DNA of 64,000 nt, taken from NCBI RefSeq assembly GCF_017569225.1, contig NZ_CP071868.1, positions 2,170,001 to 2,234,000 on the forward strand, written 5' to 3'. The notes beneath the pieces are model-generated. The model searched no databases. It was not told where the DNA came from and saw only the letters and a program-made list of their open reading frames with translations. Within the stretch, counting starts at the first letter, position 1, and every line of letters begins with the position of its first letter. Shown in pieces: positions 11,036 through 37,341 of this stretch. The translations under genes and the position numbers were made by a program. This DNA is from Pengzhenrongella sicca. Lineage in GTDB: Bacteria > Actinomycetota > Actinomycetes > Actinomycetales > Cellulomonadaceae.

Positions 11036-11965
11036 GTGCGCGAGCTGCGAGTGACGATGATGGGGTCGTTCACCCTGACGGATGGCCGCGAGGTCATGCG
11101 CTACCCGCTGCTGCACCGGGCCCAGAGCCTGCTCGCGATCATCCTGCTAGCGCCCGAGCGCAGCCTCCTGCGCGAGAGCGCCGCCGAGTCCGTGTGGCCC
11201 GACGCCGGGGCGGACGCGTCGAAGCGCGCGATGCGGCAGGCGCTGTGGCAGATCCACCACGCGACCGACGCCGGCCTGCCCGAGAGCGCGCGCCTGGTGC
11301 TCTCCGACGGGGAGGCGCTGCGGATCAACCCCGAGCGGCCCGTGCTCGTCGACGTCGACGTCTTCGCCGACGCGGCGCGCCAGCTGCGCGTGGTCGGCCC
11401 CGACGGCCTGACAGACGCCGACGTCGCGCGCCTGGCCCGCGCCGCCGAGCTCTATCGCGGGCCGCTCCTGGCGGGCTGCTACGACGAGTGGTGCCTGGCG
11501 CCGCGCGCCCGGCTCGACGACCGGGCGCTGACCCTGCTCGACGCGCTCAGCCGCGCGGCCGAGCGCCAGGGCCAGCTGGACGCGGCGATCGGGTGGGCGC
11601 AACGGCTCCTCGACGTGGAGCCCGCGCACGAGCGCACCCATCGGCGCCTCATGCGGCTCTACCACCGCACGGGCGACCGCACGCGCGCGCTCCGGCAGCT
11701 GCACCGGTGCCGGTGGACGCTGCAGCACGAGCTCGGGGTCGATCCGTCGGCGCTGACGGAGGAGCTCGGCGCCGCGATCGGGGCGGACCTGTCGCCCGAG
11801 GCCGTGCCGCTGGAGCGGGTGCCGCCCGAGCGCGCGCCCGTCCTGCCGGCGCCGACGTCCCCCGGCGGTCGCGTCGCGGCACTTGAGGCCTTCCGGGCCG
11901 AGCTCGCCGCCGTCCGGCTGAGCATCGACGCCATCGGCGAGCAGCTGCGGGACGCGCCCGCCTGA
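11036..11965 (+). CDS. SARP-type (BTAD) transcriptional activator of the contractile particle cluster
   Basis: A 309-residue regulator: N-terminal winged helix of the OmpR-like SARP type (LRVTMMGSFTLTDGREV ... LLAPERSLLRESAAESVWPDA ... MRQALWQIHHATDAGL), then a bacterial transcriptional activation domain (DVDVFADAARQL ... AELYRGPLLAGCYDEWCLAPRARL ... RTHRRLMRLYHRTGDRTRALRQLHRC ... LGVDPSALTEELGAAI). A short helical tail (AALEAFRAELAAVRLSIDAIGEQL) could form a coiled coil. GTG 11036 is chosen because GGGAG stands upstream and the domain begins right after it. It precedes the tail-like operon by 148 bp and shares its strand. Four 11-bp spaced repeats in that gap fit SARP binding, so it is the likely activator. 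Confidence 0.9.
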   Translation: MRELRVTMMGSFTLTDGREVMRYPLLHRAQSLLAIILLAPERSLLRESAAESVWPDAGADASKRAMRQALWQIHHATDAGLPESARLVLSDGEALRINPERPVLVDVDVFADAARQLRVVGPDGLTDADVARLARAAELYRGPLLAGCYDEWCLAPRARLDDRALTLLDALSRAAERQGQLDAAIGWAQRLLDVEPAHERTHRRLMRLYHRTGDRTRALRQLHRCRWTLQHELGVDPSALTEELGAAIGADLSPEAVPLERVPPERAPVLPAPTSPGGRVAALEAFRAELAAVRLSIDAIGEQLRDAPA

Positions 11966-11991
11966 GCCCAGAAAACGGAAAGCCACGAAAA

Positions 11992-12032: not shown

Positions 12033-12113
12033 ACCACCGGCCCAGGCTGGCTCGATGACGCGGCGGGGGACCTCCCCGACGACGGCGCGGGGGACCGGGA
12101 GAGCACTCGTGAC

Positions 12114-13361
12114 ATGGGCGGCGCAGCGATGGACGACGATGCGGGGGACCTGGTCGTCGCGCGGTCGTTCGTCGTGCGCGCGATGCTCGAGCGGCCTGAC
12201 GTCGCCCCGGCGCGCTGGCACGGCTTCATCACCGACGCCGAGACCGGCGAGCGCCACGCGTGGCGGCGGGTCGCGGACATCGCGCGGTCCGTCGAGGCCA
12301 CGCTGGCCGCGGCCGCGGCCGGTCCCCGCCGCGGATCTCCCGGCGGGCTGCGCATCCGGGGGGCGGCCATGGCCGGACCCGCGCTGACCGACGTCGTGAC
12401 CGACATGCTGACGGTGCTCGGCCTGCGGCTGCCCGCCGCGGCGCCCGCGCTGCCGGACCCCAACGTCACGCTCGAACGCGTGCAGGAGAAGCTCGTGGGG
12501 CTCGGAAACCACCGCGGCGACGAGCCGACCGGGACCCTCGGCACGCGCACCCTGCGCGGCGGCCGGCTGGACGCGCGCGTGCGGTTCCAGCTGTGGGCCG
12601 CGTCGGCCCCCGACGTCGACGCCGCGATGCAGCTGCTGCACACCACCCTGCTCGACGACGGTGCCGACCTGCGCCAGGAGGGCTTCCTCCGGTTCGCGGC
12701 CGCCGGCACGACCCTGGCCGAGCACGTGCCGACCGTGGGTGCGGGGGCCTGGCGCAAGGCGAGCAGCTTCGACCTGCTGTATGAGTACCAGTTCGTCGAC
12801 GCCGACGACGCCGCGAGCCTGATCGCGCGCCTGGAGGTCACGACGGATCCCGAGGTCGTCGCCGGACCGGGCCGGGAGCGCGGTTCGATCGTCGACGAGC
12901 TGGCGCGCTGGGACGACGAGGGCGCGCCCGACCTCGTCGTCCGCGGCCCGGCCGGCGTGGCGCGGGTGAGCGCCCTGACCTTCGTGCCCGGCCCGGCGCT
13001 GGGCGGCACGGTGACGTTCGCGCGGTCGTCCGGCACGGGCGCCCCGGCGGCGCACCTGCCCGACCTCGACGCGTTCTGGCTCGCCACCGCCGGTGCCCGG
13101 CCGGCGCAGCCCGATGCCGACGTCACCCTGACCCCGGCGCTCGCGTTCGCGGCGCTCGGCCCGCCCGCGCCGGGGCTCGAGCTCGGCGACTGGGACGCCG
13201 ACGCGACCCCGGACGCGTACACGGCCTTCGACCGCCGCCTCGACGACGCGCTGGTGCTGCCGACCGCGGCCGACCGCTTCACCCTGACCTACACCCCGCC
13301 CGGAGGCGGCGCCGGGCTGGACCAGACCGCCGTCGTCTACCTCAGGGTCAACCCGCCGTGA
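12114..13361 (+). CDS. Contractile-particle protein in the tail-terminator position (unknown function)
   Basis: A 415-residue soluble protein immediately before the sheath gene, the usual place of a tail terminator/capping gene in contractile tails. The middle region (around 85-245) reads ARVRFQLWAASAPDVDAAM, GFLRFAAAGTTLAEHV, WRKASSFDLLYEYQFVD, an alternating strand/helix pattern like phage tail-terminator proteins. The remaining C-terminal part (around 270-415) looks like a beta-sandwich (VARVSALTFVPGPALGGTVTFARSSG ... RFTLTYTPPGG). ATG 12114 or 12129 are both possible. No family can be named with confidence; the terminator role is an inference from position and pattern. Confidence 0.7.
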   Translation: MGGAAMDDDAGDLVVARSFVVRAMLERPDVAPARWHGFITDAETGERHAWRRVADIARSVEATLAAAAAGPRRGSPGGLRIRGAAMAGPALTDVVTDMLTVLGLRLPAAAPALPDPNVTLERVQEKLVGLGNHRGDEPTGTLGTRTLRGGRLDARVRFQLWAASAPDVDAAMQLLHTTLLDDGADLRQEGFLRFAAAGTTLAEHVPTVGAGAWRKASSFDLLYEYQFVDADDAASLIARLEVTTDPEVVAGPGRERGSIVDELARWDDEGAPDLVVRGPAGVARVSALTFVPGPALGGTVTFARSSGTGAPAAHLPDLDAFWLATAGARPAQPDADVTLTPALAFAALGPPAPGLELGDWDADATPDAYTAFDRRLDDALVLPTAADRFTLTYTPPGGGAGLDQTAVVYLRVNPP

Positions 13362-13380
13362 GCACGAAGGAGAGGAAGTC

Positions 13381-15030
13381 ATGACCGAAACAGTCCTGCC
13401 CGGCGTACTCATCGAGGTGCGCCCGGAGGGTCTCATCGTCCCCGGCGCGATCACCGTGGGAAACGTGGGGGTGGTCGGCACCGCGGGCAAGGGCGCCGTC
13501 GGGACCCCCCAGCTGCTCGGCAGCTACTCCGACGCGACCGGGCGGTTCGGCGCGTACGACCGCTGGGTCGACGGCGCGTCCGGCGAGCTGACGCTCGTGC
13601 GCGCGCTCGAGCAGGCCTACCGGTTCGGCGCCTCGACCGTCTGGGCCGTGCGCGTCGCCGACTCCAACGCCGTCGCCGCGACCGCCGACCTCGCGTCGCC
13701 CACCGGCCCGAACGTGACCGTCGCGGCGCTGTCGCCGGGCACCTGGGGCAACGAGCTCACCGTCGCGGTGAGCACGGCCGACGCCAACGCCGTGGTCGGG
13801 TCCGAGGAGGTGGCCGGGACCCCGCCGACGCTCGCGCACAGCCCCGTCGTGCACAGTGCCGTCAACCGGATCCTCGTGCGGCCGGCGGCGGGCGGCGCCG
13901 ACGCCGTCCCCGGGATCGTGTACGACGCGGCCCCCGGGCCCACCCAGGTCGGGGTTGACACCACGACCGGAGTGCTGACCTTCGGCTCCGCGCCCGGGGC
14001 CGGCGACGTCGTGCTCGCCACCTACACCGTGGCCAAGTCGGCCGCACGCAAGGTGACGATCACGCTCGGCGTCGCCGCGGCGGAGGAGTACAGCGTCGTG
14101 TCGGGCGACGACCTCGTCGCGGACCTGGCGGCGAGCTCGGCCCTCGTGTCGGGCACCGCCCTCGCGAACTCCGCCGAGCTGCCCGACGCCGTCGCGACCA
14201 CCCCGCTCACGGGCGGGGCCAACGGTGCGGCCGGTGCCGACTACCAGACGGGCCTCGACGCGCTCCTCGGCGTCGACGCCCACATCATCGTCGCCGCGGG
14301 GCAGGACCAGTCCTTCGGGGACGACCTCGCCGCGCACACCGCCGCCGCCTCGGGCGACGCGATCAAGCGCGAGCGGATCGCCGTCGTCGGCACGGCGCTT
14401 GAGAACGACCGGGCGACGTTCGTGCAGGACGCGGCCGCGCACACGCTCAACAGCGACCGCGTGATCCTCGTCGCCCCCGGCATCACGGCCGCCGACCGGT
14501 CCCAGTCGCCGCCGGCCACGGTCACGCTGCCCGGCGCGTACGCGGCGGCCGCCGTCGCGGGCCTGCTCTCGTCGCAGCCGCCGCACATCAGCCTGACGAA
14601 CAAGGTGCTCGCCGTGGACGGCCTCGAGCACTCGTTCTCCAGCGCCGAGCTCAAGCAGCTCGTGCTCAGCCGGCTGCTCGCGATCGAGAGCCGGCAGGGC
14701 TTCCGGCTCGTGCGGGGGATCACGACGTCGACCAACACGGCCTGGACGCAGATCACCACGCGCCGCATCGTCGACTACGCGAAGTACGGCGTGCGCAGCG
14801 CGGCGACCCCCTACATCGGGCTGCTGAACAACGAGCGAGTCCGGGGGGCGCTGCGCGCGACCCTCAACAGCTTCCTCACGACGATGGTGCTCGACGAGAT
14901 GCTCGTGAGCTACGAGCTCGACGTGCACGCCTCCCGCGACGACGAGATCCGGGGCATCGCCCTGGTCGACCTCGTCATCCGACCGACCTTCAGCATCGAC
15001 TTCATCAAGGTGACGATGTTCCTCGAGTAA
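13381..15030 (+). CDS. Contractile tail sheath protein
   Basis: A 549-residue sheath. The N-terminus (LPGVLIEVRPEGLIVPGAITVGNVGVVGTAGKG) and C-terminus (ELDVHASRDDEIRGIALVDLVIRPTFSIDFIKVTMFLE) carry conserved sheath features; the terminal IDFIKVT strand is the arm that links neighbouring subunits. The central region includes PGTWGNELTVAV and a domain ending ALRATLNSFLTTMVLDEMLVSY. It follows the preceding gene by 19 bp with GAAGGAGAGG as ribosome site. The sheath polymerises round the tube and contracts to drive it into a target. It is the strongest single identifier of the cluster as a contractile machine. Confidence 0.95.
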   Translation: MTETVLPGVLIEVRPEGLIVPGAITVGNVGVVGTAGKGAVGTPQLLGSYSDATGRFGAYDRWVDGASGELTLVRALEQAYRFGASTVWAVRVADSNAVAATADLASPTGPNVTVAALSPGTWGNELTVAVSTADANAVVGSEEVAGTPPTLAHSPVVHSAVNRILVRPAAGGADAVPGIVYDAAPGPTQVGVDTTTGVLTFGSAPGAGDVVLATYTVAKSAARKVTITLGVAAAEEYSVVSGDDLVADLAASSALVSGTALANSAELPDAVATTPLTGGANGAAGADYQTGLDALLGVDAHIIVAAGQDQSFGDDLAAHTAAASGDAIKRERIAVVGTALENDRATFVQDAAAHTLNSDRVILVAPGITAADRSQSPPATVTLPGAYAAAAVAGLLSSQPPHISLTNKVLAVDGLEHSFSSAELKQLVLSRLLAIESRQGFRLVRGITTSTNTAWTQITTRRIVDYAKYGVRSAATPYIGLLNNERVRGALRATLNSFLTTMVLDEMLVSYELDVHASRDDEIRGIALVDLVIRPTFSIDFIKVTMFLE

Positions 15031-15038
15031 GGATGCTC

Positions 15039-15590
15039 ATGGCACTCACAGAAGTTTTCACCGGCAAGCACGCCGCGCTCACGCTCGCCAGCGAGGACAC
15101 CCCCGAGGGCGCCGACGCCAAGGCCGTGGTCGACGAGTTCGCGATCCAGACCGTGGGGCGGCTGACCGACGTGCGGGTGACCGTGGACACGGCGCTCAAA
15201 GAGTTCTACGAGGTGGGCCGCCGGCACCCGGTCTCGCTCAGCCCCGGGGACATCGCGGTGCACGGCACCGTCGGGCGCGCGTACGTGAACGGCGCGCTGC
15301 TGATGCTGCTGCAGGGCCGCGGGTCGGCGCCGACCGCGATCGCCGAGCCCTACGTCCAGCCCGCGTTCACGATCACCCTGCGGCTGGCGGACCCGGCCCG
15401 GCCCGGGAACTCGCTCACCCTCGAGATCGGCGGCGTGAAGTTCCAGAATTGGAGCTTCACCCTGCCGGAGGACGACTTCGTGCTCGAGAACCTGGCGTTC
15501 CGGGCGCTCACGATCCGCGTCGTGGACCGCGAGGGCGGCGACTCCGGCGGCGAGGCTGCGCCCACGGCCGTCGCGTTCGCCAGCGAGTAG
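15039..15590 (+). CDS. Tail tube protein
   Basis: A 183-residue beta-rich protein directly after the sheath, the standard sheath-tube order. Visible features are DVRVTVDTALKEFYEVGRRHPV, a central AVHGTVGRAYVNGALLMLLQG and a C-terminal strand pair (LEIGGVKFQNWSFTLPEDDFVLENLAFRALTIRV), typical of Hcp/gp19-type tubes, which end with 'v.f.a..i.v'. ATG 15039 is preferred to ATG 15033 because AAGGA stands 7 bp before it. It forms the inner tube expelled on contraction. Confidence 0.88.
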   Translation: MALTEVFTGKHAALTLASEDTPEGADAKAVVDEFAIQTVGRLTDVRVTVDTALKEFYEVGRRHPVSLSPGDIAVHGTVGRAYVNGALLMLLQGRGSAPTAIAEPYVQPAFTITLRLADPARPGNSLTLEIGGVKFQNWSFTLPEDDFVLENLAFRALTIRVVDREGGDSGGEAAPTAVAFASE

Positions 15591-15599: not shown

Positions 15600-16055
15600 A
15601 TGCCGCTCTCGGCGGAGGATCTGCTCGCGGGCAGCGCCCTGACCCACGACGTCGCGGTGCCCGCGGCCCTGGTCGGGGCGACCGCCGGGACGGTGCGCAT
15701 CCGCCCGCTCACGGTCCGGGACGTCCAGCTCATCGCGCACGCGAGCAAGGACGACCGCGAGCTCGCCGCGGGGTTGATGATCGCGCGCGCCGTCGTCGAG
15801 CCGGCCCTGACGGCCGAGCAGGCGGGGCGGCTGCCCGCCGGGCTCGCGCGCTTCCTGGTGGACGCGGTGAACGAGCTGAGCGGGATCGACACCCCGCGCG
15901 ACCGTCTGGGCGAGCTGGTGCAGGCGCCGCTGGCCAAGGCGTGCTTCGTGCTGGCCGACGAGTTCGGCTGGACGGCGGAGGACGTGACCGCGATGACGAT
16001 CGGCCAGATCCTCATGTACCTGGAGATGGCCGGCCGGGCCGCGGAGGTCGCATGA
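15600..16055 (+). CDS. Putative tail assembly chaperone-like protein
   Basis: A 151-residue mostly helical protein after the tube gene. It reads TVRIRPLTVRDVQLIAHASKDDRELAAGLMIARAVVEPALTAEQAGRLP ... FLVDAVNELSGI, the pattern of phage tail-assembly chaperones and related proteins ('i.plt..d...i...' then 'a..l...a..ep.l...e...l'). It ends in ATGA overlapping the next gene. In phages this gene guards the tape-measure protein encoded next. The assignment is by position and pattern only. Confidence 0.65.
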   Translation: MPLSAEDLLAGSALTHDVAVPAALVGATAGTVRIRPLTVRDVQLIAHASKDDRELAAGLMIARAVVEPALTAEQAGRLPAGLARFLVDAVNELSGIDTPRDRLGELVQAPLAKACFVLADEFGWTAEDVTAMTIGQILMYLEMAGRAAEVA

Positions 16056-17337
16056 GCACCGCCGGGGTTGGGATCGGGATCGGGCGCGCGGCGCCGGGCA
16101 CGGGCGTGCTCGACGCGGCGGGCGGCGCCGCGGCGTGGTGCCGCGCCGTCGTCGGCGCCACCGGGGCGCTGCACGACGTCGCCGCGTCCGTCGGCGCCCT
16201 GCGCGCGGTCGCGCCGGTCGCCCCGCGGATCGCCCGCGGGCCGGGGTACGGCGCGGCGCTCGCCGAGCTCACCGGCGGCCCACCGGCAGCGACTGCGACG
16301 GCAGCGCCCGCGGAGCGCGCCGGCGGGCGGACCGGCGGGACCGCGTGGGCGCCGCCGGGGGAGTCGACCCGCGGCGCGCCAGCGCCCGCAGCACCGCCAC
16401 CTACCGGCCGGCGCACCCGGCCGGGCACGACCGCGGGCCCGGCCCAGACCGCCGCGCCGGCCGGGACCGCCGGGACCGCCGGGACCGCCAGCTCGATCGC
16501 GGGGTCGCGGCCGCGCGCGCTGGCCGGGCCCGGCGCCGATGCCCCGCTCCGGTCTCGGCCGCAGCGGGTGCACCCCGACCGGCAGGCCGACCGTGCCAGC
16601 GCCTCGGCGGCGTCGGGCGAGGTGGTCGCGGGGGTGCGCGCCGGCGCCGCGACCTATGCGCCGGGCGTCGCGGGGCGGGTGTCCCTGCGCCTCGCGCTGC
16701 TGGCCGGTTCCCTCGCCGCGGGTGGCCGGCTCCGGCCAGGGTCGATCCGTGCCGAGGCAATCCCCGGCGGGTCGCCAGCTGGTGGGTCGGCGGTGCACGC
16801 CGCTCTCCTCACCGCTCTCCTGATGAGCGCGCCGCGGGCGGTCGGCGCAGCTGCCGGCCCGACGACCGCGCGGCTGGTCGAGCTCGCCGCCGGGCCTGCG
16901 CTGACCGCCGGGACGGCGCTCGCCGGGGGGCCGGTCGTGGTGATGGCCGCGGGCGCGCCCACCGCGGGCCCTCCGGCGACCGGCGGCCGCGCCCCGCGGC
17001 GTCGCCGGCGTCGGCGCGCGCCGGCTCGACGGACCTGGCCTCGATGGACCTCGCCGACGCCGCCGCGGGCCGCCCGGGCCGCCGGGCGGAGCCGCGCGCA
17101 GACGCGCGCGGGGTCCGCGCCCTGACGCGCTTCGCGGAGCAGCCGGCCGAACCCGCCCGGCTGGGCCCCGCGCCCGCCGACGGCGGCGCGCCCGCTGGCG
17201 GCGACCCGTCGGTGGGCACCTGGCCCGCGCCGGGTGAACGCGGCGCCGGGGCGGCCGGGCTGGCCGAGCCGGACCTGGAGCGGCTCCTGACGCGCGTGCT
17301 CGACGACGCCGCGCGCCGGCACGGGATCGAGGTGTGA
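16052..17337 (+). CDS. Ala/Pro/Gly-rich particle protein split by a frameshift (tape-measure position)
   Basis: Reading begins at ATG 16052 (ATGA overlap) and runs in one frame with plausible sequence to about 16985 (… LVELAAGPALTAGTALAGGPVVVMAAGAP), after which that frame becomes a run of Arg/Pro and stops at 17125. From about 16990 the frame one base back gives normal coding sequence (ARAGSTDLASMDLADAAAG … RALTRFAEQPAEP … LAEPDLERLLTRVLDDAARRHGIEV) ending at 17337, 1 bp before the next ATG. So one gene of about 428 residues needs a -1 shift or has lost a base. A run of six G at 16925-16930 and GC-only sequence make an indel error likely. The position fits a tape measure, but low complexity prevents a firm call. 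Confidence 0.6.
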
Positions 17338-17338: not shown

Positions 17339-17881
17339 ATGCGCCCGGTGCTCGCGGGGGCGGAGCTGCCCCAGGTGCAGGACCTGACCACGAACGACCT
17401 GCGCGCCATCGCCGAGCACAAGGCGCCGGGCAAGGACGGCAGCATGCTGCAGAACCTCGGGCGCGCCCCGACCGGCGTCACGGTCCGCGGCGTCGCGACC
17501 GATCCCCGGTCGCTCGAGCTCGTCGAGCGGCTCAAGGCGGACCTGCGCACTGGGGCGCCCGTGCCGTTCGTCGCCGACATCACGACGACGACGACGATCG
17601 AGCAGGTGCTCATCGACGACCTGCAGGTGCGCCAGCTCGCCGGGAAGCCCGACCGGTACGCGTACGTGCTGACCCTGCGCGAGTTCATCGAGCCGGTCGA
17701 GCCGGCGTCCACCGCAGCGCTGGACGCCGACATCCTCGGCGACGCGACCGACCTCGTCGACGGCCTGCTCGACGGCCTCGACCTCGCGTTGCCGTTCGAG
17801 ACCGGCCTCGACCGGTTCGTCGCGCCCCTGACCGAGCTGCTCGAGCGGCTCCAGACCTTCCGCGGCGCCATCGAGCGCTGA
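17339..17881 (+). CDS. Tail-hub adaptor protein (gpU/DNA_circ_N/LysM-adaptor type)
   Basis: A 180-residue protein whose first 120 residues match the adaptor fold linking tube to hub: MLQNLGRAPTGVTVRGVATDP, LKADLRTGAPVPFVADITTTTTIEQVLIDDLQVRQLAGKPDRYAYVLTLREF. The same blocks occur in the first 125 residues of the 1343-residue protein two genes downstream, so the two are paralogous. The C-terminal 55 residues are helical (LDADILGDATDLVDGLLDGLDLALPF). No LysM motif is visible. It probably sits between tube and spike hub. Confidence 0.72.
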   Translation: MRPVLAGAELPQVQDLTTNDLRAIAEHKAPGKDGSMLQNLGRAPTGVTVRGVATDPRSLELVERLKADLRTGAPVPFVADITTTTTIEQVLIDDLQVRQLAGKPDRYAYVLTLREFIEPVEPASTAALDADILGDATDLVDGLLDGLDLALPFETGLDRFVAPLTELLERLQTFRGAIER

Positions 17882-17930: not shown

Positions 17931-18347
17931 ATGGCCGATCAGAACCTCTTCGAGCAGCTCAAGGAGGTGCTCGCGGACTTCAAGGCGTTCCTCGACGCCA
18001 ACGTCGCGACCATCAAGCCCGCCGTCCAGGCGATCGCCTCGCTCGTGCCGCAGATCACCGAGCTCATCGACCTGCTGGTCGGGCTGCTCGGCAAGCTCAA
18101 GACCGAGCTGCAGAACCTCGACGTCGGCGCGATCCCCGGCCTGGGCGAGGTCGCCGAGTTCACCGGGATGATCCCCGCGCTGCTCGAGGCCGCGAAGAAG
18201 CTCCTGCCCGGCGAGACGTCGAGCATCGACTCGATCGCGGACGTCGCGGACGTCGTCACCGGGCTGCCGTCGGTCGACGCGGTCAAGGCCGAGCTCATCG
18301 CGCTGATCGACGCCATCACCGTGCACCTGAACTCCCTGAAGCCCTGA
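17931..18347 (+). CDS. Small all-helical particle protein
   Basis: A 138-residue protein predicted almost entirely helical, with heptad-like hydrophobic spacing (LFEQLKEVLADFKAFLDANVATIKPAVQAIASLVPQITELIDLLVGLLGKLKTELQNL). It lies between the two adaptor paralogues. AAAGGAG precedes the ATG. No signal peptide and no clear membrane helix. It may be a tape-measure or inner-tube component or a chaperone; function is unknown. Nothing outside this cluster was recognised as related. Confidence 0.65.
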   Translation: MADQNLFEQLKEVLADFKAFLDANVATIKPAVQAIASLVPQITELIDLLVGLLGKLKTELQNLDVGAIPGLGEVAEFTGMIPALLEAAKKLLPGETSSIDSIADVADVVTGLPSVDAVKAELIALIDAITVHLNSLKP

Positions 18348-25663: not shown

Positions 25664-25725
25664 CCGGGATCGCCAGGAGCGGGGTCGCCAGGCCCGGGAT
25701 GGCCAAACGGAGGGAGCAGCGATGA
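25660..25725 (+). CDS. 21-codon coupling ORF between PAAR and gp25 genes
   Basis: A 21-residue frame (MTGIARSGVARPGMAKRREQR) begins in an ATGA overlap with the PAAR stop and ends in an ATGA overlap with the gp25 start. Exact overlap at both ends means ribosomes can pass from one gene to the next without leaving. The peptide is basic and probably has no function; a translational-coupling role is an inference. Confidence 0.45.
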   Translation: MTGIARSGVARPGMAKRREQR

Positions 25726-26237
25726 GCACACCGATCGTCGGCCCCGCGGTACCCCGCGAGGAGCTGTTCGGCGCGGACCTGCGCCTGCTCGGCGACCTCG
25801 AGCGCGCCGAGCAGCGCGAGCGCGGCGGCGACCTGTTCACCGCGATCCGCCCGCAGCTGCGGCTGCCGGGGGACCCGGACGCGTCCCCGCACGACCTGCA
25901 GCGCCTCGAGGGCGTCGCCGACCTGCAGCAGGCGCTCCTGCTGCGGTTCCTCACCCAGGTCGGGGAGCTCGCCCACCTCGGCCACCCGACGTACGGCAGC
26001 CGCCTGCACGAGCTCGTGGGCGAGCTCAACAACGAGGCGACCCGCAACCGCGCCAAGCTCTACGCGCTGCAGGCGCTGCTCGACGAGCCGCGCATCGCGC
26101 GGGTCCGCTCGATCGTGGTGACCACGCGCAGCGGGGACCCGACCTGGGTCGACGTGCGGGCCGCCGTCGTCGCCATCGACCAGGTGACCGAGCTCAACCT
26201 CGTGTTCCCGGTCCCGCTCGCGGGAGGAGCGACATGA
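25722..26237 (+). CDS. Baseplate wedge protein, gp25/GPW family
   Basis: A 171-residue protein with the gp25 pattern: ERGGDLFTAIRPQLRLPGDP … RLEGVADLQQALLLRFLTQVGELAHLGHPTYGSRLHELVGELNN … RIARVRSIVVTTRSGDPTWVDVRAAVVAIDQ. GGAGGGAG upstream of ATG. In contractile machines gp25 links the sheath to the baseplate and starts sheath assembly. Confidence 0.9.
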   Translation: MSTPIVGPAVPREELFGADLRLLGDLERAEQRERGGDLFTAIRPQLRLPGDPDASPHDLQRLEGVADLQQALLLRFLTQVGELAHLGHPTYGSRLHELVGELNNEATRNRAKLYALQALLDEPRIARVRSIVVTTRSGDPTWVDVRAAVVAIDQVTELNLVFPVPLAGGAT

Positions 26238-26290
26238 ACCTTGACGCCGGAGGTGTCCCGATGAACCTCGACACCGGAGGTGTCCCATGA
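26234..26290 (+). repeat. Tandem duplication of a ribosome-binding/start segment, forming an 18-codon ORF
   Basis: Two near-identical units starting at ATG 26234 and ATG 26261 (27 and 26 bp) precede the real gpJ start at 26287. Each unit contains ATGAACCT(T/C)GAC then GGAGGTGTCCC. The ORF from 26234 encodes MNLDAGGVPMNLDTGGVP and starts and ends in ATGA overlaps with its neighbours. The GGAGG in the second unit is the ribosome site for gpJ. A duplication of the initiation region is the simplest origin. Confidence 0.8.
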
Positions 26291-30800: not shown

Positions 30801-32209
30801 ACCTGCTCGGCCCCGTCGACCTCGGCGAGCGGTCGATCCTGCGCCTGGCGGTCGACGGCGGCGAGCCGGTCGACGTCGACGTCGCCGGCGTGACGGCGTC
30901 GGCCACGCTGCTGGGCGAGGTCGTCGCCGCGATCGACCGCGTCCTGCCGGGCGTCGCGCAGGTCGGCCCCGCCCAGCGGCTCCGGCTCGTCTCGCGGGAC
31001 GCGGGCGCCGACGCCCGGGTCGAGGTCGTGCCCGTGCGCCAGCTCGAGGTCGTCGAGTACCCGCCCACGACGGCCGCGGCCGGGTTCGACGTGCGGCACG
31101 GCTCGGTCCTGCTGTTCGCGAACGCCGGGGCCGCCGCCGTGCCCGGACGCGTCGAGCTCACCACTGCCGCCGGGGTGGCCGGGCCGCGGCTCGCGGACCC
31201 CGCGGCCGGCTGGTCGGTCCGCGTCGACGAGCCGGTCGTCGCCGGCGGGCGGCTCGTGCTCGAGCCCGCCGCGGCGGGCGGGGTCACCGCGACGCTCGTG
31301 ACGGACGGCGTCGCGCGGGTGCTCGCCCCGGAGCTCGTGCACGTCGCGCCGGCCCCCGGCGCGGGCGCCGACGGGACCCGCGCGCTGACCGTGCGGCGCG
31401 GGCGAAACCGCTGGAGCTTCACGCAGTGCCGCGCCGCCCGGTTCGACGAGGCCGTCTTCGACACCGACCGGTTCGCCGGCGGGGCGTGCACCGAGGAGGC
31501 CGTGTTCGACCTGAGCCGGCTCGGGCCGGCCGAGACCCCCGCGGTGTTCGCGGCCGCCGCGACGCACGCGGCGACCGCGCACGTCGCGGTGACCTGGGAC
31601 GCGCACGAGGCCGGCGCGTTCGAGGTCAGCCTTCCGCGCGAGCTCGACGTCCGGTTCGGGGTCGAGCTCGGGCAGGCGCGGTTCGGCGCCGCCGAGCCCG
31701 AGCTGCTGCCCGGCGTCGTGACCGAGCCGCTGACCGACGACCAGCACGTCGTGACGCGGATCAACACCGGCTCGCGGCTCATCGAGGCCCGGCTCGCGCC
31801 AGCCGTGCCGATCGGCTGGGCCCCGGTCGCGTTGCCGTTCCGCGACCCGGCGCCCCTGACGCTCGGCCGGCCCGACGCCGAGGCGCGGCTGTACGTCTCC
31901 GGGCCGGGGCTCGCCCCCGGCTTCCTCGAGCTGCGCGCCGCCGAGGTGGGCGCGTACGGCAACGAGATCACCGTGACCGCACGGGTCGCCGGGCCGGCCA
32001 TCTACGACCTCGAGGTCCGCCTGCCGGGCGGCCGGTTCGAGAACGCGCGCGCCGTCGTGTTCGGCCCGCCGCTGCCGACGCTCGCGGACGACCTGCTCGC
32101 CCCACGCCCCGTCGGGGTGGGCACCGCCAAGGCCGCGGGGATCCGCGCGCACGTCACCAGGGACAGGGCCGTCCCGGCCGTAACCCACGAAACCGGGCTC
32201 CGCCCGTGA
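27884..32209 (+). CDS. Giant gpI-like tail protein with eight flagellin-hook-IN-like repeats
   Basis: A 1441-residue protein. Residues 1-115 match phage tail protein I (ILANLPPTFRLRGDPSALRALVDAYGGELQQAENSLVAVMRAHW … LYGLAPRPDESVEEFRDHLRRYVRTHLEGTVTVRGILRITAEALG). Residues about 162-1055 hold eight repeats of 110-130 residues, each with a VDL..GVDL strand, a LRLAVDG..PVEVD strand, an EIV.AIN.AL helix and a LTLTSTT.G..S.V strand pair, the layout of flagellin hook-IN motifs. About 1060-1441: beta domains (SVLLFANAG … RFGVELGQARFG … AEVGAYGNEITVTARVAGPAIYDLEVRLPGGRFENARAVVF). The tail-protein head would bind the baseplate, with repeats projecting outwards as a fibre. Length far exceeds the ~200 residues of gpI proteins. 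Confidence 0.82.
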   Translation: MPKADRILANLPPTFRLRGDPSALRALVDAYGGELQQAENSLVAVMRAHWVQFADAGEPRIEDLALFAALYGLAPRPDESVEEFRDHLRRYVRTHLEGTVTVRGILRITAEALGLHIEDDALDAWWDRAEPVLVTTAALGADAASLVLGAGAAVADGADAAPARLVGDVDLGLGVDLRARSILWVALDGHGALPVDLTTGAGDPALVTPAELVAAIDAELGVAGVAAAVGGRLTLTSTTTGVASQVAVEDGPGDAADLVLGLAPRSYAGTDATRARLTGTADLSTALDLTGERYLRLAVDGAHLVEVDCAVLAPDPAAVDVGDVTDAINAALGFDAATDDGRFLTLASPTLGPAGSIVLLDPAAQPATARLFGDAPRAAVGAAARRASVASDRGIGQGVDLTGDSLLRIAVDAEPAVTVDIAGLAPAATTPAEIVASVNEGLGATVASHDGDRITLASTTAGAAGLVRVEEVAGDAAEAVLGLRPRSARGAAPVTAALTGQVDLSAGVDLSARHLLVLAVDGAAPVEVDLRAGVADPTHASVEEVAAAVNAALGSDDPADDPVATDDGAHLILVSTAAGAAGRLEVAPLRRTLRRRFVTRARVTDDAATKVLGFTARSAAGAPAQAALLAGGTDLSGGADLTTDRYLRLRIGDAEPVEIDCAGPRPRATTPAEIVARIVAAAGPVATTDGHTIVLTDPEPGGASRVALEPPRACDALDRVLGLTPRTARGDGAAGVRFTGTVDLSAGVELVADAALRIGVDGAAPVDVPVGDGVATAVRPLSQLVARINLALAAPVAAHDSTHLLLVAPTTGAGASLTFEAPSVGTDATATLLGIAPPRTYAGRGATAARLTGVVDLTAGADLRVANLLTLAVDGAAPVIVDLTAAVAPADHGAVPAAQVAAAINAATTAAAVTVAIPGGLAVQVTSPSSGPSSRLDVARTGAGDAAPLLFGAAGLVATGADPAPAVIDGTVDLLGPVDLGERSILRLAVDGGEPVDVDVAGVTASATLLGEVVAAIDRVLPGVAQVGPAQRLRLVSRDAGADARVEVVPVRQLEVVEYPPTTAAAGFDVRHGSVLLFANAGAAAVPGRVELTTAAGVAGPRLADPAAGWSVRVDEPVVAGGRLVLEPAAAGGVTATLVTDGVARVLAPELVHVAPAPGAGADGTRALTVRRGRNRWSFTQCRAARFDEAVFDTDRFAGGACTEEAVFDLSRLGPAETPAVFAAAATHAATAHVAVTWDAHEAGAFEVSLPRELDVRFGVELGQARFGAAEPELLPGVVTEPLTDDQHVVTRINTGSRLIEARLAPAVPIGWAPVALPFRDPAPLTLGRPDAEARLYVSGPGLAPGFLELRAAEVGAYGNEITVTARVAGPAIYDLEVRLPGGRFENARAVVFGPPLPTLADDLLAPRPVGVGTAKAAGIRAHVTRDRAVPAVTHETGLRP

Positions 32210-32225: not shown

Positions 32226-33182
32226 ATGACCGAGACCACCGTGCCCTACGTGGAACGGGCCCCCGGCGACCTGCTCACGGCCGAGGACTGGAACACCGTG
32301 CAGGTCAAGATCCACGCCGACATCCGCTCGACGTCGCAGGCCGCGGCCGACGCCGTCACGCACGTCGCGTCGGCCGACGACGCCGACCACCTCGAGGGCA
32401 AGGACCTCGACGCCCTGACCGCGGAGGTCACCAAGCGGGTGCTCGACGAGGTCCGCGGCCGCTCCGGGTACCAGCAGCTCGTCAAGGTCCTGCGGGCGGG
32501 CGAGATCACGGTGCTCGAGCACGGGCTCGGCACCGCGCCGGTCGTCGACCTGTACAAGCTCGAGTACTTCGAGGTCGTGTGCCGCGAGGACGACGAGACC
32601 CGCGCCGCGTTCGCGACGTTCTACCTGCACCACTCCGAGGAGCGCCGGGTGCGCGTGACGGCCGACGACGGCACGCGCCGCTCGATCGACATCCAACCCC
32701 CCGATTTCCCCGACCTGGGCATCCCGTTCGCGGACATGCTCGCCCGCTATCAGGTCGAGTACACCGACACCACGACGCTGGACGACCTCGAGACGGAGTT
32801 CTGGAAGGCGTTCTACCGCGACCCGAACGACCAGTTCGGGGACGATCAGTACTGCCACTCGCCGTGGTTCGAGCGCTGCTGCAAGGAGCAGCAGACCGTG
32901 CGGCGGCTCAAGCAGAACGGCGACTGGAACGACATCGTGTTCCAGATGCGGCCGCGCAAGTCCGTGAACTTCGCGGGCACGCCCGCGCAGGGCGACAACG
33001 AGCGGGGCCGCAACCCGCGGCCGGCGAACACGTTCGTCCAGCACCTCGACAACAACCGCACCGCCGTCTGGTTCGAGGGCACCGCCCTGCACGACGCCGG
33101 GCTGGAGTCCCGCGCGCGCGACTACATCGGCGCCCGGGAGTTCGACTCCGAGCTGAAGCTGATGATCCTGCTCAAGGCGTAG
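32226..33182 (+). CDS. Particle-cluster protein, possible fibre component
   Basis: A 318-residue acidic protein after the gpI-like giant; AGGAG precedes ATG 32226. The N-terminus (YVERAPGDLLTAEDWNTVQVKIHADIRSTSQAAADAVTHV) resembles the baseplate-proximal helix of tail fibres; the middle is beta-rich (LGTAPVVDLYKLEYFEVVCREDDETRAAFATFYLHHSEERRVRV). The C-terminal third has a Cys cluster (CHSPWFERCCKEQQ) and ends FDSELKLMILLKA. No family recognised. Confidence 0.7.
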   Translation: MTETTVPYVERAPGDLLTAEDWNTVQVKIHADIRSTSQAAADAVTHVASADDADHLEGKDLDALTAEVTKRVLDEVRGRSGYQQLVKVLRAGEITVLEHGLGTAPVVDLYKLEYFEVVCREDDETRAAFATFYLHHSEERRVRVTADDGTRRSIDIQPPDFPDLGIPFADMLARYQVEYTDTTTLDDLETEFWKAFYRDPNDQFGDDQYCHSPWFERCCKEQQTVRRLKQNGDWNDIVFQMRPRKSVNFAGTPAQGDNERGRNPRPANTFVQHLDNNRTAVWFEGTALHDAGLESRARDYIGAREFDSELKLMILLKA

Positions 33183-33231
33183 CCGCGCCGCCGCGCCGCG
33201 GGAAGGTTCGAATCGTCGAGAGGGAGCGGTC

Positions 33232-36200
33232 ATGCAGGTCAGGGCAGTGCACGCCGGGGGGTCGCTGCCGTTCGAGCGGGAGCGCCGGCTCGTGCTGCGC
33301 CGGCTCCCGGTCGGCGCGGTGCTCACCCGCGCGGTCCTGACCCTCACCCCGGTCTCGACCGACCCGGGCCGGCGCTTCCTCGAGACCCTGACGTTCGCCG
33401 ACGGCGTCGGCGACTGGGGCGCGAACAAAGTCGTCACCGCCGCGGCCGTCGAGGTCGACCTGCACGCGCGGCGCAAGCTCGCCGCGCTCGTCGGCGCGAA
33501 CCTCGCGACCGGCACCTTGCTCGTCGATCTCGGCGGCGGGTTCATGGGCGTCAACGCCGCCGGCGGGCTCGGCGGCGGGCCGGCGCTACCGACCGCGAAC
33601 ACGATGGACCTGCCCGGCCTGACGGTCACGGGCCTGCGGGCGGCGCTGACCGGCCCCGGCGCCGGCGCGGGCGACATCTCGCTGCTGCAGGTCAGCTCGC
33701 CGCCGAGCAACGTGACGCTCGCCGTCGAGGGCGGCCCGGTCGTGTTCTCCCACGTCGGCGACCTGGTCGACGCCGTGACGACGCCCGACTTCGCTGATGT
33801 GCTCCAGGCGATGCTGCCGCGGCTCGAGGTGGCGGGCGGGTGCTACCTCGTGCCGTTCACGGTGCACTCCGACACGATCGCGCGCCTGGACCTCACGCTC
33901 GAGCTCGACTACGCGCTCGCCGCGTCGGCCGCGCCCGCGGGCGTGCGCACCGTCCAGGCGCCCTACGCCTTCGGCGGCGCCCCGGTCGCCGGGCAGGGTC
34001 GCCTGTCGGTTCTGGTCCCGCCCGGCATGGTCGCGACGCCGGGCGGCACGGCGGGACGGATCCGGGGCGCGTTCGCGGCCACGCGCGTCGTCTACGGGCC
34101 GGTAACGGCGCCCGAAGCGCCCGAACTCGTCGTCCTCGAGGCCGGGCGGTCGCTGGCCCAGCAGCTCACCCTGCCGACGACGCAGGTCGCCTCGTCCGTC
34201 GACCTGCAGCTCACGGCTGTCACGGCCAGCGCGACGATCGCGGTCGACCTGGTGACCGACCTGGACGGCAAGCCCGGCCGGAGCTCCCTGCTGGCCCGGC
34301 CGGCCGAGCGCACGCTGACCCGGGACGAGGCGGGGGCCCCGACCTGGATCAACGTCCCGCTGCCAGCCGAGGTCGAGGTCGCGGCGGGGCTGGCGCGCTG
34401 GCTCGTCGTCCAGGCGCGGGAGGGCTCGCTCGCCTGGAGCGCCGCCGCGGCGACGCCGCCCGCGCCCGCGCCCGCGCCGTCGTCGTCGTTGTCCTCGTCG
34501 TCGTCGTTGTCCTCGTCGTTGTCCTCGTCGTCGTCCGCATCGTCGTCCGCACCCGCGCTGTCCGCGCCCGCGCTGCAGCTCACGCGCGACGGCGGCCTGT
34601 CGTGGCGCGCGGTCGCGGGCGAGACCGTGCCCGCGCCGCTGGGTGCGCTGCTGCGCCTGCGGCACGCGACGGCCGGCTTCGAGCTGCCGCTCGAGCTGCG
34701 CGTCGGCGCCGGCGGCGAGGAGGTCGCGGTGTCGCTGCAGCGGTTCGCGCCGTCCGGGGGCGTGGACTTCGGCCTCGACTTCCCGGAGGTCGCGGGCGCC
34801 GTCAACGCCGCGCTCGCCTCCGCCGGCGGCGGCGCGACGCCCGGCGGCGGCGAGCAGGTCGCGAACGGGGACTTCGCCGACTGGCTCCGGGCCGGCACGG
34901 CCGTGCGCGGGCCGTCGTCGCTGCGCGGGCGCTCCGCCGAGCCGGTCACGTTCGGGGCGTGCGCGTTCGGTCCCGACAGCGCGCTCGTGCACACGGTCGG
35001 GCGGGGCGAGGCGCAGGCGCGCTACGTCGCCTTCAACCTGTTCTCGCGCGTCGCGGAGGTCGACGAGCCGATCGGCGCCGGGTTCCCGCTCGCGCTCGCG
35101 CTCGATGCCCCGGGACGCACCGCCCTCGTCAGCCTCGCGACCGGCGGCGTCGAGCTCGCCGCGGCGCCCGCAGGCGCGGGTCTGGTCCTCGTCGACACCG
35201 CGACCGGCCGGCCGATCGGCGCGCCGGTCGACGCCCCGGAGCCGGCGGTCGCGCTCGCGGCGGCCCCCGACGGGCTTGGCGTCTACCTCGCCGGGCCCGC
35301 GCGCACGCAGTCCGGCCCGGCGACGATGGTTCGCCACGCCGGCTGGGCCGAGCTGCGCGCCGCCGCCGCGGGCTCTCCCATGGCCTGGGCGGACCTGCCG
35401 GCGGCCGCCGTCGACGGTGCGCCGATCGCCCTCGCCGCCGGGCCCGACGGCCTCGTCGCCGTGCTCACCACCGGCGAGCCCGCCGCGGACGGCAGCCCCG
35501 GCACCCCGCGGCTGGTGACGTTCGTGGACCGGGCGGCGGTCGCCGGGAGCGACGGCCGGGAGGTCGCCGCGGTGCCCGACGCCGTGGCCCTCGCGGTGCT
35601 CGCCTCGGGCGCCGAGATCCTCACGCTCGGGCGCCATCAGGTCCGGTTCCTGCGCGCGGCGGACCGCGCGACGATCGTCGACGTCCCGTTCCCGGACGGG
35701 GCCGGCACGGCGCGCGCCCTCGCGGTCGACCCGCGGGGCGAGCTCGTGCTCGTGGCCCACGACGGCGGGGTCGCGGTGCTCGACGCGGCGAACCGGCGGC
35801 TGCTGCCCGGCCAGGGGGTCGAGCTGGAGACCTCCGACGCCGGCGCCGCGGTCGGGATCAACCTGGCCGGCACGCACGCCGTCGTGCTTGCCACGGGGAC
35901 CACCCGGGCGAGCGTGCTCACGATCGGCGACGCGCTGCCTGCCGAGTGGGAACTGACCGCGGGCCAGGTGCGGCCGGTGGCCCTGCCGACCACGGGAGAG
36001 GTGCTGGCCCTGCTCGGCAGTGCGACCGCCGTCGACCGCCGGGAGGCCTCCCCGCCGGCGTCGATGTCGCAGGTGCTGCCGGTCGCGGGCGGCGCCCGGT
36101 ACCGCTTCGCGTTCGACGGCCTCGCGTTCGTCGAGGGCGCGGTCGCGCAGGTCCGGTGGACGGGCGACGCGTGCGCCACCGAGCGCGTCGACCGGGTCCC

Positions 36201-37341
36201 GGTCCAGGCGGTCGACCTCGCCGTGCGCGGCTCGGTCGCCAGCCTCGGCCACCACCAGGCCGTGCTGACCGCGCCCGCGAACGCGACGACGGCCGAGGTC
36301 CGGTTCTGGACGCCCGAGTCGGTGCTGGTCGTGGACAAGGTCAGCCTCGCCGGGTCCGGGGACGTCGCGACGGCGGCCTGGGCCCCAACGGCGCCGACGA
36401 CGACCGTCAGCCCCGCGGGTGCGGGCCTGACGCTCTCGAACGGCGGGGCGGCCGGCGCGGCCGTGACCCAGGTCGTGGCGGCGACGGCCGGCGACCGGTT
36501 CGCGCTCGAGCTCGCGGCGACAGCGACCGGGGAGCCCGGCGCCGCGGTCGAGCTCGCGTTCGCCGACGACGGCGCCGCGCCGGTCGGCGAGGTCGTGCGG
36601 GTCCCGCTCGACGCCCTCGACTTCGACGTCCGCGGCGCGATCGGCGACGTCCCGGCCGGCGCGGTCGAGGCCGAGCTCCGGGTCGTGCTGCCGCCCGGCG
36701 CGCGGGTCGAACTTGCCGAGCTGACTTTCACGCTCGGCGCCGCGACCGAGGTCGGCCTCTACTTCGCGGCGCAGGCGCCGGGCGACCTCGGCCTGACGGA
36801 CGTCGCGGTCGTGCTCGACGAGGGCGTTCCGCAGCCGGTGTTGGTGCCGCCCGGCGGGCTGTGCCCCGCCACCGCGGCGGGGGACGGGGCCGACGGGGAG
36901 TCCTGCTACTGCCAGGCGTGCGGCACGCGGGGGCCGGCGCGGCGCGGGCGGCCGGCCCGCACCGACGCGGGACGGCCCGCGACGGTGAGCCCGTGCCCGA
37001 CGTGCGGGACGCCGCGCGTGCGGACGGGCGGCCGGACCGCCAGTGGGGCGGGCGCCGTCGGGCTGCCGCGGTTCCGGGTGCCCGACCGGACGCTCGCGCG
37101 CGGGCCCGCGATCGTGAGCCGCGTGCACATCGACGCGCCGCTGACGGCGATCGCGGGGATCGCCGCGGCGCGCGCCGGGCAGCTCGCCGCCGCGGGGATC
37201 GGGGACGTCGTCACGCTCGCCCGCGCGGACGCGAAGGTCGTCGCGGCGCTCCCGCGCGTCTCCGACGCGATGGCCGCGGCGTTCATCGCCGAGGCGGGCC
37301 GGCTGGTGCGCGAGCGGGGCCGGCGGGTCGTGTTCGACTAG
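33232..37341 (+). CDS. Giant distal particle protein: beta modules, Ser linker, propeller-like region, zinc ribbon and helical-hairpin tail
   Basis: A 1369-residue protein ending the operon. Residues 1-410: beta-rich (LRRLPVGAVLTRAVLTLTPVST … LTGPGAGAGDISLLQVSSPP). 417-439: 23-residue Ser/Leu linker. About 600-960: repeated strand motifs with LVLVDTATGRPIG, LALAAGPDGLVAVL and ARALAVDPRGELVLVAHDGGVAVLD, like a beta-propeller. About 990-1200: two carbohydrate-binding-like beta domains. C1227/C1230 and C1255/C1258 form a CxxC…CxxC zinc ribbon. About 1300-1360: a helical segment (LTAIAGIAAARAGQLAAAGIGDVVTLARADAKVVAAL) like the helix-hairpin-helix/DUF4332 type. It may be a receptor-binding protein or a cargo. 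Function is unknown. Confidence 0.75.
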   Translation: MQVRAVHAGGSLPFERERRLVLRRLPVGAVLTRAVLTLTPVSTDPGRRFLETLTFADGVGDWGANKVVTAAAVEVDLHARRKLAALVGANLATGTLLVDLGGGFMGVNAAGGLGGGPALPTANTMDLPGLTVTGLRAALTGPGAGAGDISLLQVSSPPSNVTLAVEGGPVVFSHVGDLVDAVTTPDFADVLQAMLPRLEVAGGCYLVPFTVHSDTIARLDLTLELDYALAASAAPAGVRTVQAPYAFGGAPVAGQGRLSVLVPPGMVATPGGTAGRIRGAFAATRVVYGPVTAPEAPELVVLEAGRSLAQQLTLPTTQVASSVDLQLTAVTASATIAVDLVTDLDGKPGRSSLLARPAERTLTRDEAGAPTWINVPLPAEVEVAAGLARWLVVQAREGSLAWSAAAATPPAPAPAPSSSLSSSSSLSSSLSSSSSASSSAPALSAPALQLTRDGGLSWRAVAGETVPAPLGALLRLRHATAGFELPLELRVGAGGEEVAVSLQRFAPSGGVDFGLDFPEVAGAVNAALASAGGGATPGGGEQVANGDFADWLRAGTAVRGPSSLRGRSAEPVTFGACAFGPDSALVHTVGRGEAQARYVAFNLFSRVAEVDEPIGAGFPLALALDAPGRTALVSLATGGVELAAAPAGAGLVLVDTATGRPIGAPVDAPEPAVALAAAPDGLGVYLAGPARTQSGPATMVRHAGWAELRAAAAGSPMAWADLPAAAVDGAPIALAAGPDGLVAVLTTGEPAADGSPGTPRLVTFVDRAAVAGSDGREVAAVPDAVALAVLASGAEILTLGRHQVRFLRAADRATIVDVPFPDGAGTARALAVDPRGELVLVAHDGGVAVLDAANRRLLPGQGVELETSDAGAAVGINLAGTHAVVLATGTTRASVLTIGDALPAEWELTAGQVRPVALPTTGEVLALLGSATAVDRREASPPASMSQVLPVAGGARYRFAFDGLAFVEGAVAQVRWTGDACATERVDRVPVQAVDLAVRGSVASLGHHQAVLTAPANATTAEVRFWTPESVLVVDKVSLAGSGDVATAAWAPTAPTTTVSPAGAGLTLSNGGAAGAAVTQVVAATAGDRFALELAATATGEPGAAVELAFADDGAAPVGEVVRVPLDALDFDVRGAIGDVPAGAVEAELRVVLPPGARVELAELTFTLGAATEVGLYFAAQAPGDLGLTDVAVVLDEGVPQPVLVPPGGLCPATAAGDGADGESCYCQACGTRGPARRGRPARTDAGRPATVSPCPTCGTPRVRTGGRTASGAGAVGLPRFRVPDRTLARGPAIVSRVHIDAPLTAIAGIAAARAGQLAAAGIGDVVTLARADAKVVAALPRVSDAMAAAFIAEAGRLVRERGRRVVFD
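34480..34548 (+). repeat. TCG-rich low-complexity tract encoding a Ser linker
   Basis: 69 bp built from TCG, TTG and TCC codons encode 23 residues, all Ser except three Leu and one Ala (residues 417-439). Length could change by 3-bp slippage. It separates the N-terminal beta region from the rest of the giant distal protein. Confidence 0.85.

What the first reader, a model, noticed from the sequence alone, without database searches (positions are those of the whole stretch)
11036..37341. SARP-led contractile particle cluster that fits neither prophage, T6SS nor canonical eCIS
The genes follow contractile-tail order: terminator-like, sheath, tube, chaperone-like, adaptors, hub, spike, PAAR, gp25, gpJ, gpI, fibre-like. 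There is no capsid, terminase, portal, integrase or lysis gene, and no AAA+ ATPase with a Walker A motif anywhere in the block, although such an ATPase is a core feature of most described eCIS. Two proteins of over 1300 residues and a 1441-residue repeat protein have no counterpart in standard sets that I know of. A dedicated SARP regulator sits at the head. This may be a separate lineage of actinobacterial contractile system.
Basis: partly seen in the sequence, partly recalled or inferred. Interest (0 to 1): 0.88.

Follow-up and report, generated by a model that had tools for sequence, protein, structure and literature searches.

The report
Headless, ATPase-free contractile injection gene cluster
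This is a nearly complete set of genes for a phage-tail-like contractile device without a virus head or the usual loading motor, from a separate family found in several bacterial phyla that seems to have swapped a long length-setting protein for a very short one and gained a cell-wall-binding part.

Summary
In detail: 11036-37341 (+) encodes SARP, sheath, tube, TAC-like, two adaptor-type, hub, spike, gp25, gpJ and gpI-position proteins, with no head, lysis or AAA+ gene found; the whole genome has no portal, HK97-capsid or TerL match. One Eremiobacterota relative carries an eCIS-type ATPase. 'Terminator-like' is not supported. New here: relatives split once on the sheath tree. Class B has a 1087-1248-aa helical, tape-measure-like protein near the adaptor gene; class A (window clade, support 99) has a ~138-aa helical protein there, plus a second adaptor, usually fused to OmpA/peptidoglycan-binding domains, in 23 of 24 loci. 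Most likely a SARP-controlled, peptidoglycan-docking contractile injector with a very short or absent ruler; particle, length and target are inferred. In this strain one gene (16052-17337) breaks frame. Filters of two surveys read in part would probably exclude such clusters. New variant of a known kind.

The parts
11036..11965 (+). SARP/BTAD regulator
   Evidence: Pfam BTAD 9.5e-25; best match beside the cluster in five of five close relatives compared
12114..13361 (+). conserved protein of unknown role (reader: terminator-like)
   Evidence: in all 13 class A regions, as a 168-aa form in Desulfobacula, and in some other class B or unclassified loci; terminator identity not supported
13381..15030 (+). 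contractile sheath
   Evidence: Pfam/PHROG, alignment A1, trees
15033..15590 (+). tube protein
   Evidence: position after sheath; 20-sequence alignment, 40-87% identity; PHROG tail hit only 0.0038; no Pfam hit
15600..16055 (+). tail assembly chaperone (TAC_7-like)
   Evidence: Pfam Phage_TAC_7 0.0031, below cut-off; family in 21 of 21 regions
16052..17337 (+). g06, proline-rich protein with conserved ends; frame broken in the window (16052-17125 in one frame, conserved C-terminus ending 17337 in another)
17339..17881 (+). adaptor / tube-initiator type protein (DNA_circ_N/DUF6046-like)
   Evidence: Pfam 0.001-0.003, below cut-offs; alignment A3
17931..18347 (+). g08, 138-aa all-helical protein at the position where class B has a 1087-1248-aa tape-measure-like protein
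   Evidence: AlphaFold2 model mean pLDDT 84, all helix
18398..22429 (+). g09, second adaptor domain fused to OmpA + PG_binding_1 and a ~940-aa C-terminal part
   Evidence: Pfam OmpA 2.5e-8, PG_binding_1 2.3e-9; N-terminus paralogous to the adaptor, 40% identity, hhalign 99.7%
22426..23406 (+). g10, unknown; found in seven actinobacterial regions, the window included
23403..24476 (+). baseplate hub (gpD type)
   Evidence: PHROG 196 7.3e-8; Phage_GPD 8e-4, below cut-off
24473..25276 (+). spike (gpV OB type)
   Evidence: Phage_base_V 3.1e-7
25331..25663 (+). PAAR-like tip protein (label from position and look)
   Evidence: no Pfam hit; family in 14 regions
25722..26237 (+). gp25-type baseplate wedge
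   Evidence: PHROG 975 6.3e-16
26287..27891 (+). gpJ-type baseplate wedge
   Evidence: PHROG 6 5.6e-35
27884..32209 (+). gpI-position protein enlarged by about 8 repeats of ~111 aa
   Evidence: repeat search; family in 21 of 21 regions by iterated HMM
32226..33182 (+). g17, baseplate/fibre-type candidate, unknown
   Evidence: alignment A8
33232..37341 (+). g18, large protein: choice-of-anchor R-like part, stretch like surface-layer protein 1l0q (a beta-propeller, recalled), cysteine pairs, HHH domain; fibre or adhesin candidate
   Evidence: NCBIfam 1.5e-4, below cut-off; PDB profile 1l0q 4.3e-16 and HHH hits

Best explanation
The block encodes a phage-tail-derived contractile injection device of a lineage separate from the eCIS-like and phage sheaths compared. 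Shown by sequence: a near-complete contractile tail (sheath, tube, chaperone, adaptor, hub, spike, gp25, gpJ, gpI position) with no head, packaging, lysis or AAA+ gene found; a single sheath locus in the genome; purifying selection; membership of a cross-phylum clade (class A) marked by a ~138-aa helical protein where sister class B has a ~1150-aa tape-measure-like protein, and by a second adaptor, mostly fused to OmpA/PG-binding domains. Inferred: the SARP switches the operon on; particles assemble in the cytoplasm without an ATPase loader; the second adaptor ring carries peptidoglycan-binding arms that dock the baseplate on peptidoglycan; contraction drives tube and spike through the envelope. 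With g08 as ruler the tube would be only about 20 nm (138 residues x ~0.15 nm, ratio recalled), against ~170 nm for class B; if g08 is no ruler, length is set otherwise, as in T6SS.
For: Gene content and order. eCIS-type ATPase absent from the window and 19 of 20 relatives' regions (the HMM was built from four control loci, so their detection is by construction, but it found the Eremiobacterota ATPase, not in the model, at 708 bits). No portal, capsid or TerL in the genome, and none on the cluster's contig in the other 16 class A-clade genomes searched (sheath places). Class A one side of a branch (support 99), class A/B state changes once, A+B against eCIS rows support 100. g08 length 129-155 aa (one 236) in 23 distinct sequences against 1087-1248 aa in 29 distinct class B sequences; no locus has both. 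g08 and two class B proteins tested are amphipathic-helical by moment; g08 all helix in the model. Two adaptor matches in 23 of 24 class A loci (the other, L038, ends at the contig edge), fused to the OmpA region in 20; no class B or unclassified locus has more than one. OmpA-region match in 22 of 24. dN/dS 0.15-0.53 against G080.
Against: No experiment, no particle seen. g08 is not shown to be homologous to the class B protein: cross-scores are no better than against reversed sequences, hhalign aligns 19 columns (probability 60.6%), no significant viral fold match (best E 0.36). Some loci outside class A match neither protein (L054 and L055: adaptor followed directly by hub; also L073, L089, L096, L105), so the position may be dispensable. 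In L040, L062 and L064 the second adaptor is a separate gene. g17/g18 and the 415-aa family are not exclusive to class A (Desulfobacula). OmpA/PG-binding parts could bind a target's wall instead. The Eremiobacterota member has the ATPase in the cluster. g06 is frame-broken in this strain, so this copy may be inactive or mis-sequenced.
Confidence: 0.6

Rival explanations
1. T6SS-like reading: no true tape measure, sheath grows to cell-defined length and the device fires from inside, held at the envelope by g09 (compare haloarchaeal CIS, without a tape-measure homologue and bound to the membrane).
For: No long tape-measure candidate matched in class A; OmpA and PG-binding domains, with a weak sub-cut-off hit to the TssL-type OmpA family (0.0027); haloarchaeal CIS precedent (PMC11566945, abstract and passages); best solved match of the sheath profile is the haloarchaeal sheath 9EZM.
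Against: No transmembrane segment in a simple hydropathy scan of the window cluster; no TssJLM-type hits apart from that weak one; no eCIS-type ATPase and no AAA hit in Pfam; a wall-binding domain without membrane passage cannot obviously reach the wall from the cytoplasm; the 9EZM match covers only the N-terminal ~130 residues.
Confidence: 0.25
2. Tailocin-like (R-type bacteriocin) particle that kills by puncture, without cargo or ATPase.
For: Phage-type parts: TAC-like chaperone, split hub and spike, Mu-like order; no ATPase; no toxin family recognised.
Against: No lysis cassette among cluster and nine flanking genes scanned; SARP at the head; cross-phylum spread; no long tape measure; enlarged gpI and g18 instead of a recognisable fibre and fibre chaperone.
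Confidence: 0.2
3. An ordinary eCIS whose ATPase lies elsewhere in the genome or was lost in a sublineage.
For: AAA-domain proteins exist in all 40 genomes searched; the Eremiobacterota member has an eCIS-type ATPase in the cluster.
Against: Of 17 lineage HMMs only sheath (5 of 5), spike (4 of 5) and gpJ (1 of 5) hit the five comparison loci at E 0.01; hub and spike are split; a TAC-like chaperone is present; sheath split from the four eCIS rows with support 100. The two AAA genes found 11-13 kb from the clusters of Phormidesmis and Pyxidicoccus score 114 and 47 bits with the eCIS-ATPase HMM, against 708-1192 for eCIS ones, and look like CDC48-type and FtsH-type (type names recalled).
Confidence: 0.1
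4. A decaying prophage remnant.
For: g06 is frame-broken in the window.
Against: No portal, HK97 capsid or TerL match in the genome; the same block in many phyla; purifying selection on 17 genes.
Confidence: 0.04

Closest known systems
Phage Mu / P2 contractile tails
   Same: Order sheath-tube-chaperone, then adaptor (N)-hub (P)-spike-wedge genes; split hub and spike
   Different: No head genes; a PAAR-like gene; in class A no long tape measure, and the class B long protein follows rather than precedes the adaptor; second adaptor with OmpA/PG-binding; SARP; sheath far away in the tree
eCIS / PLTS (Afp, PVC, Streptomyces CIS)
   Same: Headless contractile tail cluster without lysis genes; BTAD domains are known next to eCIS (PMC8213781, passage)
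   Different: No AAA+ ATPase (PLTS 'always' have one, PMC4122934, passage); phage-type chaperone and split hub/spike; sheath outside the four comparison loci
Haloarchaeal CIS / archaeal T6SS (Halogeometricum borinquense)
   Same: No tape-measure homologue reported; possible envelope link; closest solved sheath (9EZM)
   Different: By the passage seen, all components but plug, tape measure and crown were found, so presumably an ATPase too; a six-TM-helix putative anchor gene (PMC11566945); sheath similarity only N-terminal
R-type tailocins
   Same: No ATPase, no head
   Different: No lysis cassette seen, no long tape measure, SARP regulator (tailocin traits partly recalled)

Membership tests
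eCIS / PLTS | AAA+ ATPase in the cluster | tested here: not met
   absent in window; present in 1 of 20 relatives' regions (Eremiobacterota) and in 4 of 5 comparison loci, from which the HMM was built
eCIS / PLTS | headless contractile tail operon without lysis genes | tested here: met
eCIS / PLTS | sheath inside eCIS tree | tested here: not met
   only four actinobacterial rows were used, so not final
eCIS / PLTS | extracellular particle | not testable with these tools
   needs microscopy
Tailed phage / prophage | portal, capsid, terminase | tested here: not met
   whole genome; PF03354 is a weak probe (hit 1 of 17 genomes while portal hit 5)
T6SS (i-iii) | TssJLM membrane complex | not tested
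   no dedicated search; only a weak TssL-type OmpA hit
T6SS (i-iii) | ClpV-type AAA+ ATPase in cluster | tested here: inconclusive
   no AAA hit in Pfam scans of the cluster; no ClpV-specific search
R-type tailocin | no ATPase and no head | tested here: met
R-type tailocin | lysis cassette | tested here: not met
   none among cluster and nine flanking genes; endolysin PHROG hits cover only the PG-binding part of g09
R-type tailocin | phage-sized tape measure | tested here: not met

The most novel reading that the evidence does not exclude
Class A is a distinct architectural solution among contractile machines: once in its history the ~1150-residue ruler was replaced by a fixed ~138-residue helical protein, together with a second adaptor bearing peptidoglycan-binding domains, giving a stubby, wall-docked, ATPase-free injector that spread across at least six phyla and that the filters of current eCIS surveys would probably exclude.
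Probability: 0.3. Interest if true: 0.87.

Novelty: new variant of a known kind. Interest (0 to 1): 0.67.

Why it matters
Tail length is thought to follow the tape-measure protein. A clade in which that position holds a conserved ~138-aa protein instead of ~1150 aa, with one switch on the sheath tree, makes the ruler rule testable in a natural experiment. It also points to a likely blind spot: one survey removes clusters with fibre and tape measure but no ATPase (PMC12210884, methods section read), another demands eCIS-specific core genes and removes loci with phage domains nearby (PMC8213781, passages), so a cross-phylum group of headless contractile systems may go uncounted. Whether their lists hold any of these loci was not checked (supplements not readable here).

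Tried and rejected
Homology of g08 to the class B long protein: hhalign aligned 19 columns at 60.6%; HMM cross-scores matched those of reversed controls; left as unproven. g09 as the ruler: not amphipathic-helical (helix moment 0.56 against 1.18 for g08); disfavoured. Terminator identity of 12114-13361: not supported. Adaptor against Mu gpN by hhalign: 0.4%, so the Mu link rests on weak Pfam hits and order. Empty insertion site in the genus: the downstream-flank search gave KdpDE matches, not followed. Fold of g08: no viral match better than E 0.36; its PDB fold search never ran; the structure of 12114-13361 never ran. Profile searches of tube, adaptor and the 12114-13361 protein in the PDB: nothing meaningful. 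The first tree had very long phage branches; the second left out the six phage rows, G063, L066 and L089 (85 of 94 rows). A whole-genome AAA search was too unspecific; the two AAA genes it showed nearest to clusters were fetched and are not of the eCIS type. Literature: seven searches of an open-access library listed no description of this lineage that I recognised; most listed papers were seen as listings only, and preprints and most subscription papers are not covered.
Full report
OBSERVATION. The ORF list, codon-position GC and gene calls agree on one + strand block from 11036 to 37341. Profile scans support a SARP/BTAD regulator, sheath, hub, spike, gp25 and gpJ, OmpA + PG_binding_1 inside the 1343-aa protein, and, below curated cut-offs, a TAC-type chaperone and a DNA_circ_N/DUF6046-type adaptor. 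Tube, PAAR-like and gpI labels rest on position and on syntenic relatives. Nine flanking genes scanned are ordinary: FecCD transport, a periplasmic binding protein, ArsR, cation efflux before; DUF222, dehydrogenase, KdpD, response regulator after. The genome holds one Phage_sheath_1 locus and no portal, HK97 capsid or TerL match.

RELATIVES. The window sheath finds, besides itself, one full-length relative (80%) in 150 same-family genomes, three (74-76%) in 396 same-order genomes and one (55%) in 394 same-class genomes; the other matches there are weak and partial. Of five genomes of the window's genus only the window's own has a full-length match. A profile of eight sheaths found 100 relatives in genome contigs, of which 79 loci were kept, and four in viral contigs. 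In 21 regions (window and 20 fetched, about 30-40 kb) the families sheath, tube, TAC, gp25, gpJ and gpI occur in all, hub in 20.

TWO CLASSES. At the adaptor gene, class A has a short helical protein (23 distinct sequences, 129-155 aa, one 236) and class B a long one (29 distinct sequences over 1000 aa, 1087-1248 aa). No locus has both. Many of the loci end before this position and stay unclassified; L054 and L055 have the hub directly after the adaptor, and L073, L089, L096 and L105 match neither protein. Two adaptor matches occur in 23 of 24 class A loci (L038 ends at the contig edge), fused to the OmpA region in 20, separate in L040, L062 and L064; no other locus has more than one. Class A regions have a gpI-position protein of 1421-1642 aa (12 of 13; in the Eremiobacterota region the gene is cut by the region's edge) against 432-857 aa in class B. 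g17 and g18 are found in 12 of 13 class A regions (the Eremiobacterota ones lie in L052) and also in Desulfobacula, class B. Class B loci have an RHS protein (Pyxidicoccus) or a weak Zn-PLC match (Rhodospira) after the long protein.

TREE. On the sheath tree class A is one side of a branch with support 99, the A/B state changes once, and the 81 lineage rows separate from four eCIS-like rows with support 100 (quick method, SH-aLRT only; phage rows, G063, L066 and L089 left out). The tree with phage rows keeps them outside too, on very long branches. Class A rows come from Actinomycetota, Pseudomonadota, Cyanobacteriota, Chloroflexota, Acidobacteriota and Vulcanimicrobiota; several are MAGs. This implies horizontal spread.

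ATPASE AND HEAD. Five comparison loci were taken from genomes whose sheaths matched weakly; four have a 647-670-aa AAA+ protein a few genes after the sheath. An HMM of those four, run on six frames of 109 sources (window, 20 regions, 5 comparison loci, 83 loci), found them (by construction), not the fifth, and one relative, the Eremiobacterota region, at 708 bits. The 83 loci hold at most 10 kb either side of the sheath, so only the window and the 20 regions test the whole block. AAA genes 11-13 kb from the Phormidesmis and Pyxidicoccus clusters score 114 and 47 bits and are of other types. Portal, capsid and TerL were found in 5, 4 and 1 of 17 genomes of the class A clade, never on the contig that holds the cluster (sheath places; for MAG contigs this says less).

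SELECTION AND LESION. Against G080, 17 genes have dN/dS 0.15-0.53 (g08 0.31, g09 0.31, sheath 0.22); over all five relatives compared the range is 0.11-0.63, with a 60-aa gpJ fragment in one (simple Nei-Gojobori). g06 breaks frame in the window; in the 17 other regions listed one frame is open over at least 90% of the gap (homology of that frame was checked in two). Sequencing error or lesion is open.

STRUCTURE. g08 is predicted all-helical (2-38, 41-62, 71-79, 81-91, 93-110, 113-135; mean pLDDT 84.4, pTM 0.64; 12 sequences). Several helices with breaks fit either a compact bundle or segments of a ruler; the model does not decide. No viral fold match reached E 0.001.

MECHANISM. Shown: gene content, lineage, short/long switch, second adaptor with OmpA/PG-binding region, no ATPase or head found. 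Inferred: SARP control, cytoplasmic assembly, docking through g09, contraction and puncture, and a ~20-nm length if g08 is the ruler. The PVC ATPase associates effectors with the particle (PMC11495950, title and start of abstract in a listing); its absence makes ATPase-loaded cargo less likely here, and no known toxin family was recognised in the window cluster.

LITERATURE. PLTS clusters are said to always hold the AAA+ ATPase (PMC4122934, passages). Li et al. exclude clusters with Cis13 and Cis14 but lacking Cis15 (PMC12210884, abstract and one section). Geller et al. [quoted passage not shown] Haloarchaeal CIS lack a tape-measure homologue and are membrane-bound (PMC11566945, abstract and passages). 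PMC13277306 was seen as abstract and outline only. No search listed this lineage, within an open-access library.

Noticed in passing
window 16052-17337: Frame break in g06, the gene between chaperone and adaptor; open in one frame in the 17 other regions listed. Sequencing error or lesion not settled.
   Followed up: partly
Eremiobacterota region (L132/L133; overlapping L052): Class A cluster with gp25-gpJ-gpI on the opposite strand and an eCIS-type AAA+ ATPase one gene call after the PAAR-like gene: a mosaic of the two kinds.
   Followed up: partly
L054, L055 (Acidobacteria): Adaptor gene followed directly by hub: neither short nor long protein at the tape-measure position.
   Followed up: no
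L110-L113 (IMG/VR contigs): Contigs filed as viral carry class B clusters; possibly bacterial DNA misfiled as virus. Their remaining genes were not examined for head genes.
   Followed up: no
window 33232-37341: The 1369-aa protein ends in paired cysteines and a helix-hairpin-helix domain, odd for a tail fibre.
   Followed up: partly
window 40322-43560: KdpD/KdpE pair with a second copy at 83% identity elsewhere in the same genome (G000:C1:4223786-4226960).
   Followed up: no
window 6483-6577: ARAGORN tRNA-Arg call inside a FecCD gene on the same strand; probably spurious.
   Followed up: no
L156/L157 (same-genus genome G063): A different contractile cluster with a 780-aa sheath and no eCIS-type ATPase in the 40 kb fetched; phage or CIS not determined.
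   Followed up: no
L148/L149 (Leptolyngbya): Class B block with about 18 kb of mostly unidentified genes between adaptor and hub, longer than in the other members.
   Followed up: no
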